Shown piece after piece: positions 33,641-62,895 of a stretch of DNA of 64,000 nucleotides. Under the pieces are notes generated by a model, which was not told the origin of the DNA, searched no databases, and saw nothing but the letters and a program-made list of their open reading frames with translations. Where the stretch lies: contig NZ_PEBH01000001.1 of NCBI RefSeq assembly GCF_008698235.1, forward strand, positions 287,617 through 351,616, in the 5' to 3' direction. The first letter of the stretch is position 1, and each line of letters starts with the position of its first letter. A program made the position numbers and the translations under genes. This DNA is from Bifidobacterium rousetti (lineage in GTDB: Bacteria > Actinomycetota > Actinomycetes > Actinomycetales > Bifidobacteriaceae).

Positions 33641-34681
33641 TCAGAGAATTGTGCTTAGAGACTTGACGTCAGATGACGCATTGACGATGATGCGATGCAT
33701 GTAGGCATCCATGTACGCCCAGTCCGGAGCCCCGTCAATGGAGACCGGGAGTTTGATCTCGTCATTTCTCATGTACTCCAATTTCCATTTATCGACGAAC
33801 CCGTACTTCTGGCGTCCGACACGCTCGATGCAGGTACCGACGAAGAGCATCTGTCCGCGACTCATCTTGGTCTTCGGATAGAGCACATGCACGTCATCCG
33901 AAGCCCAGAACGGCTCATCTTGATAGAACGTCTTGCCCACATTGCCGTTGTATGCGACGGTGAGCGTGCCAGCGGGGTGTAAGTGCCCGTTATTCGAGAT
34001 GCGGGCGGTGATGCCGTTGTTCACGTTCGCCGCGCTGATGAACGGAATGTTTCCCGGGCGCATGTCAGCACTGGTGAGGCGTACACCCTTCTTGATGTCG
34101 AACAGGTCTTCGATTTTGAATGGCCGCCACGTTGACGTATCGACCGTATGCTTGCCATCATCGGTTTGCATCAGATTCTCGAGACTCGCCTCAGATTCTT
34201 GCATGACTTCGGACATGTAGGCATCCATGTATGCCCAGTCGGGATCGCCTTCAGCATCGATAGGGATTTTGAACCTGTCTTGTTTGATGCTTGTTATCGA
34301 AATGGAATCTCCCCACGTATATTTCCGGGACAATGACGCACGTAACGCCGTTATGAGAAACAGAAAACATGGTTCTGTGACACACTCTCCATCCAGCGGA
34401 TAAAGTGCGATGTTGTGGCTGTCGTTTGAACAGAACGCCTTCGACTGGTACGAGAAAGTGAGCGTTTTCCCTCCGATTATAATGCAATTGCCATCGTCAA
34501 TCCATGTGGTCGGACAGTCGATACACGTCATCACACCGTTGTTTCCCGATTGCGCAGTGACATAAGATACTTCTCCGCTATCCGGCTGGATGTTCTTCTG
34601 TGGGATGCTTTTGGTGTTGGTCATGCGAAAAATGCTTGAGACAAGAACGTCTTTCCACCCGCTCGCATCAATCCTCGCCAT
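33641..34681 (-). CDS. Restriction-modification specificity subunit, BcgI-B/HsdS type
   Basis: 346-residue DNA-recognition subunit made of two target-recognition domains of about 170 residues, each ending in the same signature: GDPDWAYMDAYMSEVM and GAPDWAYMDAYMHRII. The second domain begins WRPFKIEDLFDIKKGVRL, typical of HsdS/BcgI-B domains. Each half should read one half of a split recognition sequence. The start ATG 34681 overlaps the stop of the upstream catalytic subunit, so the two are coupled. Size fits BcgI-B (341 residues). Confidence 0.85.
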   Translation of the reverse strand: MARIDASGWKDVLVSSIFRMTNTKSIPQKNIQPDSGEVSYVTAQSGNNGVMTCIDCPTTWIDDGNCIIIGGKTLTFSYQSKAFCSNDSHNIALYPLDGECVTEPCFLFLITALRASLSRKYTWGDSISITSIKQDRFKIPIDAEGDPDWAYMDAYMSEVMQESEASLENLMQTDDGKHTVDTSTWRPFKIEDLFDIKKGVRLTSADMRPGNIPFISAANVNNGITARISNNGHLHPAGTLTVAYNGNVGKTFYQDEPFWASDDVHVLYPKTKMSRGQMLFVGTCIERVGRQKYGFVDKWKLEYMRNDEIKLPVSIDGAPDWAYMDAYMHRIIVNASSDVKSLSTIL

Positions 34682-36479
34682 CGGTATCACCACCCTTCTG
34701 AATGGCAATGGTTACGGTATTGTCATCGACGCTCACGCGGCTCGAATACATGGCCGTGGATGTCAGCTTCTCGCTGAACGTCTTCGCGTCGATACCCTTC
34801 TTAAACATCAGGTAGTCCATCGCCGTCTTGCGGAAGTTCTCCTCAAAAATCTCGAACGGCTTCTGCGGAACCTGATATGACAGGTGCTCGGTAGGGTTGA
34901 CCCACTGGCACGTCTCGTCGCCAGACTGCTTTTCCACGACCTCAACCCAATGGGCCTCGATTGCCGCCCACTTACCGTAGACGTCATGACGGCCCTTGTT
35001 CTTGACCGTCGCCAGACCATCAGACTCCATGTAGCAGGCGAAGAACTCCTTGCCGTCCTGCCCGACGCCTGCCTCGAACACGAAGATACTCGTGGTTACA
35101 CCGACACCAAAGAACAGATCCTCTGGGAGCTTGACGACTTTCAACAGACGGTGGCGCTTCAGAATTCGCTGCATCTGCGTTTTACTAGTCTTTTCCAGTT
35201 TCTTATCGGGTAGGATGAACGCACACAGAGTATGTGCAGCGACGCTGTCTAGTACGTTCTCGACGATGGTCATGCACCCATACTTTCTTTCGTAGGGTGG
35301 GTTCATCAGCACCTTCGTGATGGGCTTCGATTGCATCCATTTGGACGCGGCCTCGGTACGGGCGTCCATCTGCTCAAGGTTCGTCTTTCCGTCCTTGTGA
35401 ATCAGCATGTTCGCGCACGCGAGGGCGTAAATCTCACGGTCTAACTCGATGCCGTACAGGTGACTCGACTTAATCTCCGCCGCCTCATCTGTCTGCATGC
35501 CACCCGCCTCACGAATCATGTTCGCCATAGCTTTCACGAGGAAGCCGCCGGAACCACACGTAGCGTCCAGAATGTAATCTCCCTTGTTCACATCGAGTAT
35601 CTTGTACATGAAATCCGTGATGTGCTCAGGAGTGAACACTTGACCCGCCTCGGACTTCTTCTTGTACCGGTTGAACTCGTTGAAGAAGATTCCCATTACA
35701 TCCTCTCCACGCCACTCGTTCGAGTTAATGCACTCGGAAATCTCGACGACGCAATCAATGAAGTTGTTAATTGCGTTCTGGTTGTCCGTGGTATTCATCT
35801 TGATGTCGGAATACTCTTCCAGTAGGATGTCAATCTTCGCGTTTTGCTTACGACTGTTTTCCAGCGACTTAGAAAGAGTCGAGTGAATCGCCGTATGGAA
35901 CGTCGCATAGTCCATATCCTTGAGGCGCTTCAAACCCGCGCCGTAACGCTCAGCGACCAAGGCGCACGCAGTGAAAATCATACGATGGTACAGGTTCTTG
36001 ATGCCGAACTCGAAGTGAAGGCAGTTGTTGATGCGGGCGGTTAGCTCGTAGATGTGCTTCTTGTCGATGCTGTCCACTGTGTAAAGAGACAGATAGTAGC
36101 TGACGTTTTGCAGTTTATTGGGCGTCTTGGCCTCTTCCTCGCCCTTGAACACGCGAACGTCATCGCCGTTGTACAAAATGCCGATGACCTTCTCATATTG
36201 CGCCTGCATGATGCGGACGTTCTTCAGCACCTCGTCCACCTGCGCCTTACCGAGCGCAATGCGCGTCGCCTTGACCTCCAAGACCACTGCAACATCGTTT
36301 TTATTGTTCGGTAAATACCACCCGTCGGGCTTGTCGGCAACACCCGGGAACCCGAGCTGGTTGAACGTGGTTATCTGCCCCGTGCCGGACCGAGCGCCAT
36401 CCTTGCCGTCCAGCGAGGACAGACCTAGCACTTTGTCTGCCTCCAGACGGACCTTGTCTTCAGTCATTTCAGCGGCCAT
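34668..36479 (-). CDS. Combined nuclease-methyltransferase subunit, BcgI-A-like
   Basis: 603-residue protein. The N-terminal part contains a PD-(D/E)XK-type motif (DVAVVLEVKAT near residue 65). The centre is an N6-adenine methyltransferase with motif I DATCGSGGFLVKAM near 300 and motif IV NPPYERKYG near 390. The C-terminal part is helical. A nuclease fused to a methylase and followed by a two-domain specificity subunit is the BcgI (type IIB) layout; those enzymes cut on both sides of the site. ATG 36479 is chosen because AGGGGAGG ends 8 bases upstream. Recognition sequence cannot be predicted. Confidence 0.82.
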   Translation of the reverse strand: MAAEMTEDKVRLEADKVLGLSSLDGKDGARSGTGQITTFNQLGFPGVADKPDGWYLPNNKNDVAVVLEVKATRIALGKAQVDEVLKNVRIMQAQYEKVIGILYNGDDVRVFKGEEEAKTPNKLQNVSYYLSLYTVDSIDKKHIYELTARINNCLHFEFGIKNLYHRMIFTACALVAERYGAGLKRLKDMDYATFHTAIHSTLSKSLENSRKQNAKIDILLEEYSDIKMNTTDNQNAINNFIDCVVEISECINSNEWRGEDVMGIFFNEFNRYKKKSEAGQVFTPEHITDFMYKILDVNKGDYILDATCGSGGFLVKAMANMIREAGGMQTDEAAEIKSSHLYGIELDREIYALACANMLIHKDGKTNLEQMDARTEAASKWMQSKPITKVLMNPPYERKYGCMTIVENVLDSVAAHTLCAFILPDKKLEKTSKTQMQRILKRHRLLKVVKLPEDLFFGVGVTTSIFVFEAGVGQDGKEFFACYMESDGLATVKNKGRHDVYGKWAAIEAHWVEVVEKQSGDETCQWVNPTEHLSYQVPQKPFEIFEENFRKTAMDYLMFKKGIDAKTFSEKLTSTAMYSSRVSVDDNTVTIAIQKGGDTDGED

Positions 36480-36671
36480 GTCGTTCACCTCCCCTCATGG
36501 TGAACGATGTTTGGTTGATCCGGGGTAGCAGGCCGTTATCGCTTACCCCTCTAATTTCACGGTTAGACATCTCTTCTTCCGTCCTATCGTGTGTGTGAAT
36601 AGATACGGAAGGCTGATATCGGAGGTGTATGTATTCGCTAAACGCCGATTCACATCTCTGTGGCACGAGAA

Positions 36672-59496: not shown

Positions 59497-60885
59497 ATGG
59501 TCATACAGTTGTTCATCGGCGGTTTCAAGGTCGCCAGACCGTTGACAGGCATCACGTTGGACAGGACGACGGCCTCGCTGAAAACCGGCGAATCCATCGA
59601 CGTGACGGTCACGCTCGCGCCGTCGGACGCGAGCAACAAACGCTACCACGTCACCAGTTCGAACGAGTCCCTCGTCGCCGTGACACGCAAGGAGAACAAC
59701 ACGTGGACGATCACGGCCGCGGCGAACCCGCCTGCGGGAGGCGACGCCACCATCACCGTGGCAAGCGCCGTGAACCCGACCGTGAAGGCGACGCTGACCG
59801 TCGCGGTACGCGTCCCCGTGACGTCCATCACGGTGGACAAGCCGACCATCAGCGGCGACACGAAGACCAGCACGGACATCGTGTTCACCGTACTGCCTGA
59901 GAACGCCACGGACAAGTCCCTGACCGTGACCAGTTCGGACACGACACTGGCCACCGTGGCGAAGAAGAGCTCGGACGGCAACAAACACACGTACACCGTC
60001 ACGTACGTGAAGGGCGGCGAGGGCGTCATCAAGGCCGTCAGCGTCTCCGACCCCACCGTCACCGCATCCTCGGCGTTCACGGCCGTCCAGACCGGTCCGA
60101 GTGACGAGGAGAAGGCGGCGTGGACTGCGGCCAGACAGAAGGAGGTCACGGCCGGCACATACAAGGGCAAGGTGCCGTCGGCGTCCTTCGAACCGCTCGA
60201 TGGCTGGCTGCCGTTCGACGGCATGGGGTCCACGCCGGCGGAGATCATCGCCGCGTGCGCCCGTGCGAACGATTTCTCCGCGTTGTTCGTCGGCGACTAC
60301 ATGGACATCACCGTATCCGGCAACCAGATGCGCTACGAGGTGGCCGGCATCGACCAGTACTATCAGAGCGGCGTCAACGACAAGCATCACGTGCTCATGG
60401 TGCCGACCAGCCTGTGGCCCACGACGATGGCGTTCGACACGGGCAATGTCAACGACTACGCCCCCTCCGACCTGCACGTGTGGGAGCAGGGCGCGTTCCT
60501 GAACGCGCTTCCCGCGACGACGAGGAACAGCATTCTCGAGGTCAAGATCCCGTACGTCAATTATTCGGGCGGTTTCTCGAATCTTGCGTGCAAGGTGTTC
60601 AGCCTGTCCGAAATCGAGGTGTTCGGCGCGAAGACCTATTCGGCGGAGACCGTCGTCAACAAGGGAACGAGCGGCAAGAGCCCGCACACGCATCTCAAAA
60701 GCGTGTTCCCGGACAATGCGTCGCGCGTCAGGAAGGCGAACAACACCGCCGCATGGTGGTGGCTCAGGTCCGCGTACTCCGGCTATAGCAGCTATGTGTG
60801 CGACGTGTCGGCCTCCGGCTCCGCTGACCGTTTCGGTGCCCGCTATACGGCCGGGCGCGCCTGCCCTTGCTTCACGCTCGGCTGA
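59497..60885 (+). CDS. Receptor-binding protein, target of the diversity-generating retroelement
   Basis: 462-residue protein. Two BIG2-like Ig domains occupy about residues 12-105 and 108-195 (TGITLDRTTASLKTGESIDV, then VTSITVDKPTISGDTKTSTD). A C-terminal lectin-fold-like domain of the DUF6273 type follows (GKVPSASFEPLDGWLPFDGM, WPTTMAFDTGNVNDYA) and ends with AWWWLRSAYSGYSSYVCDVS. Codons 424-461 are the variable repeat. The variable residues Y, Y, S, Y, R, G, R, Y replace eight template asparagines. This is the usual DGR design, in which the binding face of a tail-tip protein is diversified to change host receptor. Confidence 0.9.
   Translation: MVIQLFIGGFKVARPLTGITLDRTTASLKTGESIDVTVTLAPSDASNKRYHVTSSNESLVAVTRKENNTWTITAAANPPAGGDATITVASAVNPTVKATLTVAVRVPVTSITVDKPTISGDTKTSTDIVFTVLPENATDKSLTVTSSDTTLATVAKKSSDGNKHTYTVTYVKGGEGVIKAVSVSDPTVTASSAFTAVQTGPSDEEKAAWTAARQKEVTAGTYKGKVPSASFEPLDGWLPFDGMGSTPAEIIAACARANDFSALFVGDYMDITVSGNQMRYEVAGIDQYYQSGVNDKHHVLMVPTSLWPTTMAFDTGNVNDYAPSDLHVWEQGAFLNALPATTRNSILEVKIPYVNYSGGFSNLACKVFSLSEIEVFGAKTYSAETVVNKGTSGKSPHTHLKSVFPDNASRVRKANNTAAWWWLRSAYSGYSSYVCDVSASGSADRFGARYTAGRACPCFTLG
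60765..60879 (+). repeat. DGR variable repeat (VR)
   Basis: 115 bases aligned without gaps to 61415-61529 (offset exactly 650). There are 15 mismatches, at 60775, 60784, 60791, 60793, 60829, 60830, 60835, 60836, 60841, 60842, 60844, 60870, 60875, 60876 and 60878; every one faces an A in the template. The GC-rich stretch 60848-60869 is identical in both and is the likely initiation-of-homology (IMH) core. Confidence 0.95.
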
Positions 60886-60897
60886 AAGCCGAGCCCC

Positions 60898-60940
60898 GGC
60901 GCACGCCTTCGGCGTGCGCCCCCTTCGCCCCGTAGGGGCG
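60898..60940. promoter_or_regulatory. Two GC-rich hairpins just after VR
   Basis: GGCGCACGCC/GGCGTGCGCC (60898-60907 and 60911-60920, loop TTC) and CGCCCC/GGGGCG (60926-60931 and 60935-60940, loop GTA). In the Bordetella phage DGR a hairpin or cruciform right after the IMH is needed for efficient target recognition; the position here, about 20-60 bases after VR, fits that. A terminator role is an alternative; there is no T-tract. Confidence 0.7.
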
Positions 60941-60987
60941 CGAAATCCGGGAGGCGGATCGTCGGGGGGGGTGAAAGGTTATCGGTT

Positions 60988-61407
60988 ATGAGTGGAGTGC
61001 TTGCACGGAACCGGGGAGAAAGCCGCCTCGGATACTACGACAATGCCCGCAACATACAGGTGGAGATCATCAGACTGATGGGCAGCGAGAAGATAATCCC
61101 GAAAAGCTACCGTTTCACGCTGGCGTTGCCGACCGTGCAGGACGCGAAACGCCTCGTCCAGCACGTCACCCACGGATCCGACTTCTACCCGTCCGACCCG
61201 CAGCGGCTATGGGAGCGCAAGCGGCATTGGCTGGAGGCGGTCGGCTGCTGCGACGATCTGATCATGGACCTGCAACTCATACGGGAGGTCGGGCTCGCCC
61301 CGGACACGCGACGATTCGACCGTGTCGTGGCCGCGCTCGAACACGAGAAGGCCATGCTCCGCAACCAGTTGAGGCAGGCCCGCGTGGTAGGCTCGAAACT
61401 CGGTTGA
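60988..61407 (+). CDS. DGR accessory variability determinant (Avd-like)
   Basis: 139-residue basic, helical protein between VR and TR. The segment GYYDNARNIQVEIIRLMGSE then KSYRFTLALPTVQDAKRLVQ and further helices (RLWERKRHWLEAVGCCDDLI, RRFDRVVAALEHEKAMLRNQ) give the four-helix bundle pattern of Avd proteins. Avd binds the reverse transcriptase and template RNA as a pentamer. GAAAGG lies 11 bases before ATG 60988. Its stop lies 8 bases before the template repeat. Confidence 0.82.
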   Translation: MSGVLARNRGESRLGYYDNARNIQVEIIRLMGSEKIIPKSYRFTLALPTVQDAKRLVQHVTHGSDFYPSDPQRLWERKRHWLEAVGCCDDLIMDLQLIREVGLAPDTRRFDRVVAALEHEKAMLRNQLRQARVVGSKLG

Positions 61408-61414
61408 TGTCCAG

Positions 61415-61529
61415 CAGGTCCGCGAACTCCGGCAATAGCAACAATGTGTGCGACGTGTCGGCCTCCGGCTCCGCTGACAATTTCAATGCCAACAATACGG
61501 CCGGGCGCGCCTGCCCTTGATTCAAACAC
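61415..61529 (+). repeat. DGR template repeat (TR)
   Basis: 115-base non-coding template. Read in the frame of VR it has eight AAC/AAT codons at the diversified positions, a code that cannot give a stop codon when its adenines are changed. Right after the GC-rich IMH-like stretch it has TGA where VR has TGC. It is transcribed with avd and the reverse transcriptase. Confidence 0.95.
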
Positions 61530-61755
61530 CCCGCCCCTGCGGCGAGGCCCCAGACCCAGTAGCGACACAGCGAAAGCAGAGGGATTTTTTGAAGGGGACA
61601 TCGACCATCGCGGCGAACCGCCGCGTGAATACGCACCCGGACGCGGGTGGCGGACGCTCACGTGCATGGCGTGGCACTGACGGTTCGCCATGTTGCATGC
61701 CATCCCGCTACGCGGCTGTCGGACCGTCTGGAAAAGCCGTGCCGGGTGCCCTCCT
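61530..61755 (+). ncRNA. DGR template RNA 3' spacer
   Basis: No gene is seen between TR and the reverse transcriptase. The region is structured: GCGGCG/CGCCGC (61610-61615 and 61619-61624, loop AAC) and CACCCG/CGGGTG (61634-61639 and 61644-61649). In Bordetella phage the RNA spacer after TR primes cDNA synthesis together with Avd; this segment holds the equivalent position. RNA boundaries are unknown. Confidence 0.6.
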
Positions 61756-62895
61756 ATGAGCAACGAGGACCGTCGCAGGGCGAGACGCCAGCGTCGCGAG
61801 GCCAAACGCGCGGCCAACAGGGCGAAGCGGACGAAGCAATGCACGATCGAGTCCATAGCCGACCTCAACACGCTCGAACAGGCCGCGTTCGCCGCGGCCA
61901 GCGGCGTCAGTTGGAAGGCATCGACCCAATCCTACATGCTTCATCGACTGCCGCGCATCGTGGAGGCCCGACGCAAGCTTCTCGCCGGCGAGGACGTGAC
62001 CCTGCCGCGCCGCTACTTCGACCTATGGGAGAGGGGCAAGCTCAGACACATACAGGCCGCGCGCTTCCCGGAACGGGTCATACAGAAGGCCCTGTCCCGT
62101 CAGGTGCTGCTGCCCGTCTACACGCCGACCTTCACCAGCGGCAACTCCGCCAACACGCGAGGACGCGGCACCATGTACGCGATACGACGACTCAAACGGC
62201 AATTGGCCAGACACTATCGCCGGCATGGACGGGACGGCTGGATCCTGCTATGCGACTATCGGAACTATTTCGGCAGCATCCCGCGCGAACTCGTGCTCGA
62301 ACAGGCGGCACGGCTCATAGACGATCCACGCGTGCTCGCCCTCATCCGCCGCATGCTCGACCGGGAACGCGGCGACTACGGTTTGGGATTGGGCGCGGAA
62401 CAGAACCAGATCCTCGCCGTCGCCTACCCGTCCCGCATCGACCATTGGCTGGAGGAGATGAGCGGCTGCGAGGCCACGGGCCGCTACATGGACGACGTGT
62501 ATGTGATCGACAATGATCGAGACCGATTGCGGGACGTCCTGCGCATGATCGAATACCTGTCGTGGCGTCTCGGGCTGACGCTGAATCCGAAAAAGACTCG
62601 ACTGGTGAAGCTGTCCCACGGTTTCACGTTCCTGAAACGCAAATGGAGCATCACCGATTCGGGGCGCATCGTGGTCCGTCCGGCACGCAAGGGCATCACC
62701 CATGAGCGCCGCAAACTCAAACGAATGGCGAGACTCGCGGGCAGGGGCATCCTCACGACGGCCGCGTTCGAACGCTCGTACATGTCATGGCGTGGCGGAT
62801 TGGACCATGTCAACGGGCGCCGCTCGCAGCGGACGATGGACGTCCTGTACCGCAGGCTGCTCGACGAAATCCAAGACGAAAGGGAGGCACAGTGA
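61756..62895 (+). CDS. DGR reverse transcriptase
   Basis: 379-residue group II-intron-like reverse transcriptase. After a basic N-terminus (RRRARRQRREAKRAANRAKR) come RFPERVIQKALSRQVL, TFTSGNSANTRGRGTMYAIR, the first catalytic Asp in LLCDYRNYFGSIP near residue 171, the motif-4 region GLGLGAEQNQILAVAYPSRI near 213, and the catalytic YMDD box in GRYMDDVYVI near 244. A thumb-like basic C-terminus follows. It makes error-prone cDNA from TR adenines. ATG 61756 is preferred; ATG 61690 is in frame, and neither has a clear ribosome binding site. Confidence 0.93.
   Translation: MSNEDRRRARRQRREAKRAANRAKRTKQCTIESIADLNTLEQAAFAAASGVSWKASTQSYMLHRLPRIVEARRKLLAGEDVTLPRRYFDLWERGKLRHIQAARFPERVIQKALSRQVLLPVYTPTFTSGNSANTRGRGTMYAIRRLKRQLARHYRRHGRDGWILLCDYRNYFGSIPRELVLEQAARLIDDPRVLALIRRMLDRERGDYGLGLGAEQNQILAVAYPSRIDHWLEEMSGCEATGRYMDDVYVIDNDRDRLRDVLRMIEYLSWRLGLTLNPKKTRLVKLSHGFTFLKRKWSITDSGRIVVRPARKGITHERRKLKRMARLAGRGILTTAAFERSYMSWRGGLDHVNGRRSQRTMDVLYRRLLDEIQDEREAQ

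What the first reader, a model, noticed from the sequence alone, without database searches (positions are those of the whole stretch)
59497..62895. Complete diversity-generating retroelement in a bifidobacterial-type prophage
The receptor-binding gene, VR, Avd-like gene, TR and reverse transcriptase are all present in order. TR and VR align without gaps over 115 bases at an offset of exactly 650, and all 15 mismatches fall at TR adenines (VR has T five times, G six times, C four times). Adenine-only change is the fingerprint of DGR mutagenesis, so VR has been diversified at least once. The target has two Ig-like domains and a lectin-like end, which suggests switching of host surface receptors.
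Basis: partly seen in the sequence, partly recalled or inferred. Interest (0 to 1): 0.93.

Follow-up and report, generated by a model that had tools for sequence, protein, structure and literature searches.

The report
Prophage retroelement diversifying tail-tip protein
This Bifidobacterium prophage carries all the parts of a diversity-generating retroelement, a known kind of system that is predicted to rewrite, by inaccurate copying of an RNA, the tip of a likely host-binding tail protein; its relatives share a one-base mark that likely tells the master copy from the copy to be rewritten.

Summary
TR and VR align over 115 bases; all 15 mismatches are at TR adenines. Only 11 lie in the mutable stretch. 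The other four lie at or beyond a position that is A in TR and C in VR in 52 of 59 related elements, often where the change is silent. It looks like the mark separating template from target, not mutagenesis. Two sister prophages of the same genus (95.8% identical over 10 kb) have identical TRs and VRs differing at 15 positions, 14 at TR adenines, so the lineage diversifies. Ten of ten loci found by RT-2 RNA in Actinomycetota genomes are DGRs; four of them were new to the session. The target's DUF6273 end, as modelled, matches a solved C-type-lectin-like domain. DGRs in bifidobacterial prophages were already proposed in print, and Rfam already has another DGR spacer RNA family. New member of a known kind. 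Activity in this very strain was not tested: the one identical record shows no variation.

The parts
59497..60885 (+). Target gene, 462 aa: two Big_2 Ig-like domains, then a DUF6273 C-type-lectin-like end that carries VR
   Evidence: Pfam PF02368 (two stretches) and PF19789 8.7e-20; model pLDDT 93.0, fold match
60765..60869 (+). VR, mutable stretch; 11 substitutions, all at TR adenines; eight AAY template codons, all changed
60845..60879 (+). IMH-like 3' end of VR: 25 bases identical to TR (60845-60869), then the mark GCTT (C at 60870) and the last bases of the alignment
   Evidence: the name IMH is by analogy with BPP-1
60876..60894 (+). Small inverted repeat GCTCGGC-TGAAA-GCCGAGC that holds the stop codon of the target gene
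   Evidence: read from sequence
60898..60920 (+). Hairpin 3' of VR, 10-bp arms, loop TTC
   Evidence: such hairpins in 40 of 60 loci against 1.2% of shuffles
60988..61407 (+). Avd-like gene, 139 aa, predicted four-helix bundle
61415..61529 (+). TR (template repeat); mark GATT with A at 61520
61545..61769 (+). Structured spacer RNA, Rfam RF03077 (RT-2), 103.8 bits, between TR and the body of the RT gene
61690..62895 (+). Reverse transcriptase; likely start 61756 (379 aa); YMDD, motif 4 LGAEQNQ
   Evidence: PF00078 6.9e-11, phrog_1423 5.5e-69

Best explanation
This is a complete diversity-generating retroelement in a tailed-phage prophage of Bifidobacterium: its TR and VR differ only at template adenines, and its RNA is predicted to be copied by the error-prone RT with the Avd-like protein and the copy then written into the 3' end of the tail-tip target gene. 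Steps: the avd-TR-spacer-RT transcript would fold at the RT-2 spacer, which would seat the RT and Avd (inferred from BPP-1). The RT misreads A, so eight AAY codons are randomised, and no A-to-N change in the mutable stretch can give a stop codon. The cDNA would replace VR up to the GC-rich IMH. The hairpin 3' of VR and the base that is A in TR and C in VR would mark VR as the recipient, so that TR stays constant. The result is a varied DUF6273 lectin-like tip on two Ig-like domains that likely binds the host surface. Shown: anatomy, adenine-only TR/VR difference, VR change with constant TR between sister prophages, conservation of spacer RNA, hairpin and mark. Inferred: biochemistry, activity in this strain, the mark's role, receptor binding.
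For: 15 of 15 TR/VR mismatches at A. RT nearest to the BPP-1 DGR RT among solved structures. Same gene order as BPP-1: target, avd, TR, RT, then lysis genes. Avd-like model matches BPP-1 Avd. RT-2 RNA in 55 of 85 sources scanned; the BPP-1 spacer hits another Rfam family, RF03022 Phage_DGR, at the same place. A search by RNA gave TR/VR plus RT in 10 of 10 loci, four of them new to the session. Sister prophages L011/L012: TR 0 of 110 different, VR 15 different, 14 at TR-A; L064/L065 (99.8% alike): VR 17 of 17 at TR-A. Hairpins 3' of VR in 40 of 60 loci against 1.2% in shuffles. Mark TR-A/VR-C in 52 of 59 elements; silent in 21 of the 47 in which a third codon position is possible.
Against: The only identical public record (L002, 7,311 bases compared, 100%) shows no VR variation; it may be the same isolate. 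The Avd-like protein has no significant Pfam hit, its profile does not align with BPP-1 Avd, and its fold match ranks below S23-family proteins. Pairing between TR end and spacer was not found (mean z +0.46 over 34 loci). TR/VR pairs in relatives were accepted only if at least 80% of mismatches were at A, so the adenine share there (803 of 820) is partly by selection; the sister comparison is not selected on VR-VR differences. 13 of 89 loci gave no TR/VR pair, though L021 did at a lower threshold. RT-2 was absent in 30 of 85 sources.
Confidence: 0.95

Rival explanations
1. The cassette is a DGR that has lost activity in this prophage: VR was diversified in the past and is now frozen.
For: The identical record L002 has the same VR; no same-strain variants available; RT motif 4 reads NQ, not SQ.
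Against: The three genes are open and TR/VR intact. NQ elements show the same adenine-only pattern as SQ elements (16 NQ: 189 of 389 A changed, 3 other changes; 9 SQ: 122 of 274, 2 other).
Confidence: 0.15
2. The fixed TR-A/VR-C difference is not a directional mark but a by-product of selection on the encoded protein.
For: In 26 of the 47 cases in which the base can be a third codon position, A would give a TGA stop and C gives Cys; the window is one of these.
Against: In 21 of 47 it is silent (11 CGA/CGC, 10 GGA/GGC), and in 5 of 52 that frame is closed, yet the base is still C. Caveat: the third-position frame is the only open one in 22 of the 47.
Confidence: 0.12
3. A non-DGR reverse transcriptase (group II intron, retron or defence RT) beside a chance repeat.
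For: Weak profile similarity to group II and defence RTs, expected for all RTs.
Against: Group II model 71.8 bits against a cut-off of 300; adenine-only TR/VR, Avd-like gene, BPP-1 RT as best solved match.
Confidence: 0.01

Closest known systems
Bordetella phage BPP-1 DGR (mtd-avd-TR-brt)
   Same: Gene order, place before the lysis genes, adenine-only TR/VR change (17 A sites), GC-rich IMH, hairpin 3' of VR, four-helix Avd, a spacer RNA family between TR and RT (RF03022 Phage_DGR)
   Different: IMH differs from its template copy at five places, one of them an A, with no GAT/GCT mark; RT motif IGSLTSQ; target is Mtd, not a DUF6273 protein; spacer is not RT-2 at the gathering score
DGR of Roseburia phage Shimadzu (LR596903)
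   Same: RT 43% identical, annotated Avd, RT-2 RNA (144.9 bits), DUF6273 tail fibre (23.8 bits, cut-off 23.5), mark TGATTC/TGCTTC
   Different: Baseplate genes of a contractile-tail phage nearby; motif LGSETSQ
DGRs of Faecalibacterium phages Pioen, Taranis and Roos (PMC11792537)
   Same: RT-2 RNA in Pioen and Taranis (175.1 bits each), DUF6273 targets, GGATTT/GGCTTT mark; adenine-linked variation at VR among genomes cognate to Roos is in print (passages)
   Different: RT about 33% identical, other host phylum; Roos itself was not examined beyond its RT hit
Reverse-transcriptase genes near tail genes in B. breve and B. longum prophages (PMC8705816)
   Same: Authors propose likely DGRs in bifidobacterial prophages (passages)
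   Different: The passages that I read describe RT genes near tail genes, not TR/VR or an RNA; I did not compare sequences
Rfam RF03022 Phage_DGR
   Same: Spacer RNA of a phage DGR, same place between TR and RT (L099)
   Different: Not the family that the window hits; the window hits RF03077 RT-2

Membership tests
Diversity-generating retroelement | TR/VR near-identical repeats that differ at template adenines | tested here: met
   15 of 15; 11 of 11 in the mutable stretch
Diversity-generating retroelement | RT of the DGR kind with motif 4 (I/V/L)GxxxSQ and YxDD | tested here: met
   YMDD and LGAEQNQ; SQ is NQ here, a variant that PMC3521204 names among the 15 of 155 elements that depart from SQ. 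Best solved match BPP-1 RT. The tree of 32 rows cannot by itself decide the clade: its only outgroup is two group II RTs, and retrons are not in it
Diversity-generating retroelement | VR at the 3' end of a target gene with a variable scaffold (C-type-lectin-like or Ig) | tested here: met
Diversity-generating retroelement | Accessory protein Avd | tested here: inconclusive
Diversity-generating retroelement | Hairpin 3' of VR after IMH | tested here: met
   60898-60920; 40 of 60 loci against 1.2% of shuffles
Diversity-generating retroelement | RT-dependent mutagenic retrohoming in cells | not testable with these tools
   Needs culture; lineage-level variation seen in sister prophages
Rfam RT-2 RNA (RF03077) | Covariance-model score over the gathering score of 40 bits | tested here: met
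   103.8 bits, model positions 1-222 of 222
Group II intron | RT-maturase over the NCBIfam cut-off | tested here: not met
   71.8 bits against 300

The most novel reading that the evidence does not exclude
A whole clade of gut-phage DGRs tells template from target by one base: the place just 3' of the GC-rich IMH is A in TR (GATT) and C in VR (GCTT), held at the nucleic-acid level whether or not the change is silent, and the Rfam 'RT-2' RNA is the structured spacer of this clade's DGR RNA, a counterpart of Phage_DGR in BPP-1, so that such DGRs can be found by RNA alone.
Probability: 0.55. Interest if true: 0.5.

Novelty: new member of a known kind. Interest (0 to 1): 0.4.

Why it matters
It gives a complete, intact DGR in a Bifidobacterium prophage, where the paper that I found proposed DGRs from RT genes near tail genes. 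The comparison ties the Rfam family RT-2, whose record title names only a reverse transcriptase, to DGRs (10 of 10 loci found by RNA, four new to the session). It shows a fixed TR/VR mark in 52 of 59 relatives, which makes the question of how a DGR spares its own template directly testable by a single-base change in a reporter. It also shows that an NQ motif-4 RT is a stable, adenine-specific type. The TR would allow about 2e12 protein variants.

Tried and rejected
A pairing between the TR 3' end and 100 bases of the spacer, as a priming helix, was tested with duplex energies against shuffles: mean z +0.46 over 34 loci, so it is not claimed.

Further VRs in the own genome: a DNA search with TR found only TR itself and the known VR.

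The small inverted repeat 60876-60894 was first taken for the DGR hairpin; the comparison picks the next one (60898-60920) as the strongest in the window, and relatives often have CTTGC or CTTGT loops there. Both are listed.

Sequence comparison of the target with solved structures gave only the Ig-like part; the DUF6273 part gave nothing better than E 0.053 to an antibody domain, and the profile A2 nothing better than 0.32. BFVD matches are largely Ig-domain and DUF6273 phage proteins. Mtd and other DGR variable proteins do not appear among the 50 rows, most of which Ig domains fill; this is inconclusive.

The mark is not strict: of 59 elements 7 had no GAT at the place. In L003 and L034 the alignment stopped short, in L008 it shifts by a base, in L069, L073 and L090 TR has GGCTCC against VR GGCTTC, and in L070 TR has GCTT. 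L108 from the RNA search also lacks it (9 of 10 have it). It is absent in BPP-1, ANMV-1, VP58.5 and ZX4290 (0 of 4) and present in Acutalibacter phage Fontainebleau and Faecalibacterium phage Taranis. The search for it asked for GAT in TR and for G and T on either side in VR, leaving the middle base free.

RT-2 is not needed for the mark: many loci without RT-2 at the gathering score have it (such as L046, L052, L057).

A scan for direct repeats at the right prophage end gave no convincing att site (that scan covered only 5 kb of the right side).
Full report
What is there. The window holds, in order on the + strand, a target gene (59497-60885), an Avd-like gene (60988-61407), TR (61415-61529), the Rfam RNA RT-2 (61545-61769) and an RT gene ending at 62895. 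TR and VR align without gaps at offset 650 over 115 bases; 15 of 15 mismatches are at TR adenines. Upstream lie tail genes (tape measure, Dit, endopeptidase tail protein) and downstream a holin; terminase and portal, head protease and major head protein lie further upstream. An IMG/VR record of 46,387 bases, identical over the 7,311 bases compared, places the prophage at window 20128 to the equivalent of 66514, and an integrase gene ends exactly there (L017:4004-5131). So the phage looks complete; I did not find att sites.

Correction of the count. The A at TR 61520 is C in VR. In 59 elements, left after removing near-identical TRs from 76 pairs, 52 have GAT at this place in TR and in 52 of 52 VR has GCT; 7 have no GAT there. 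GAT elsewhere in TR stays A in 13, becomes C in 2 and G in 1. The base can be a third codon position in 47 of the 52 (the only open frame in 22; more than one frame is open in 25): 26 are TGA to TGC, 11 CGA to CGC and 10 GGA to GGC, so 21 are silent, and the next codon is Phe in 47 of 47; in 5 that frame is closed. Among TR adenines 5' of the mark, 842 of 1,645 are unchanged and 152 are C. Selection on protein cannot explain the silent cases. I read the base as part of the difference between IMH (VR) and IMH* (TR), which in BPP-1 comprises five bases and lies in the 3' element needed for retrohoming. For the window, 11 mismatches remain as diversification, all at A (21 A of 105 bases; 1.4e-9). 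The related elements are not independent of each other, so no probability is given for 52 of 52.

Does it diversify? Four pairs have identical TRs and different VRs: L011/L012, two prophages of the window's genus, 95.8% identical over 10 kb, VR 15 different and 14 at TR-A; L064/L065, 17 of 17; L046/L047, 14 of 15; L057/L060, 22 of 23. Five pairs are near-identical contigs with identical VRs (L027/L028, L073/L074, L073/L076, L091/L092, L003/L010). Six pairs have TRs that differ too: L058/L059 (TR 1; VR 16 of 17 at TR-A), L052/L053 (1; 18 of 19), L054/L063 (2; 15 of 17), L081/L085 (6; 19 of 23), L062/L084 (14; 15 of 26) and L020/L023 (46; 17 of 50). For the window's own phage only the identical record exists, so activity in this strain is inferred.

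The RNA. RT-2 scores 103.8 bits in the window against a gathering score of 40. It was found in 55 of 85 sources scanned: window 1 of 1, 4 of 8, 18 of 18, 10 of 16, 6 of 17, 1 of 6, 15 of 19. Near-identical loci were not all sent. Six of the 30 sources without it are in the RT tree within one subclade (88/87), which also holds L072 and L080, with RT-2; four are the BPP-1, ANMV-1 and two Vibrio phage DGRs. The BPP-1 spacer hits the Rfam family Phage_DGR (RF03022, 104.7 bits), so Rfam already holds one DGR spacer RNA and RT-2 takes the same place in this clade. The IMG/VR loci had been chosen by RT, so I also searched by RNA alone: 7 of 396 genomes of the phylum and 3 of 112 of the genus have it (the own genome in both; strict filters, weak matches may be lost; 0 of 14 control genomes). 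Ten of ten loci carry TR/VR with at least 80% of changes at A, plus an RT. Of the ten, three are the genus members that the RT search had found, three are identical to IMG/VR loci (L107/L025, L111/L024, L113/L037) and four are new (L108, L109, L110, L114). The spacer of BPP-1 folds, recruits RT and Avd and primes cDNA (PMC12875486, passages); the same role is inferred here. In the held library I saw no paper linking RT-2 to DGRs; the one paper with the accession is the Rfam 15 update, whose one passage lists RT-2 in a table. A DGR paper that cites the 2017 RNA survey does so for protein domains (PMC8143477, sections 21 and 22 and passages); the other paper was not opened. The 2017 survey itself is not held, so priority is open.

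The site. A perfect stem of at least 7 bp with a loop of 3 to 5 within 70 bases of the GCT nearest the VR end occurs in 40 of 60 loci against 1.2% of shuffled segments (mononucleotide shuffles). BPP-1 needs such a hairpin for efficient homing (PMC3240598, abstract and passages).

Known or new. DGRs are a known class, and bifidobacterial prophages with RT genes near tail genes were proposed as likely DGRs in 2021 (PMC8705816, passages). For Faecalibacterium phage Roos, whose RT is 32.7% identical to this one, VR variation with loss of adenine is in print (PMC11792537, passages). This is a new member. The link of RT-2 to DGRs and the fixed mark are lineage-wide features that I did not see in the papers searched; they deserve a test.

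Noticed in passing
L017:4004-5131 (G000:C11:353003-354130, just beyond the window): Integrase (phrog_1, 3e-62) that ends exactly at the right border of the IMG/VR prophage record; marks the prophage's right end.
   Followed up: partly
L108 (G360) and L070: DGRs in which TR itself carries the target-type GCTT instead of GATT; natural exceptions to the mark, useful to see whether TR is then overwritten.
   Followed up: no
L069, L073, L090: A subgroup whose TR/VR boundary differs one base later (TR GGCTCC, VR GGCTTC): a C-to-T difference in place of A-to-C.
   Followed up: no
L053: The best-scoring VR lies about 4 kb downstream of TR (7749 against 3794), beyond the RT, unlike the usual upstream place; a second target gene is likely.
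   Followed up: no
window 34668-36488, - strand: Gene on the opposite strand similar to phage DNA methyltransferase and helicase families (phrog_13671, 1.5e-54) within the prophage.
   Followed up: no
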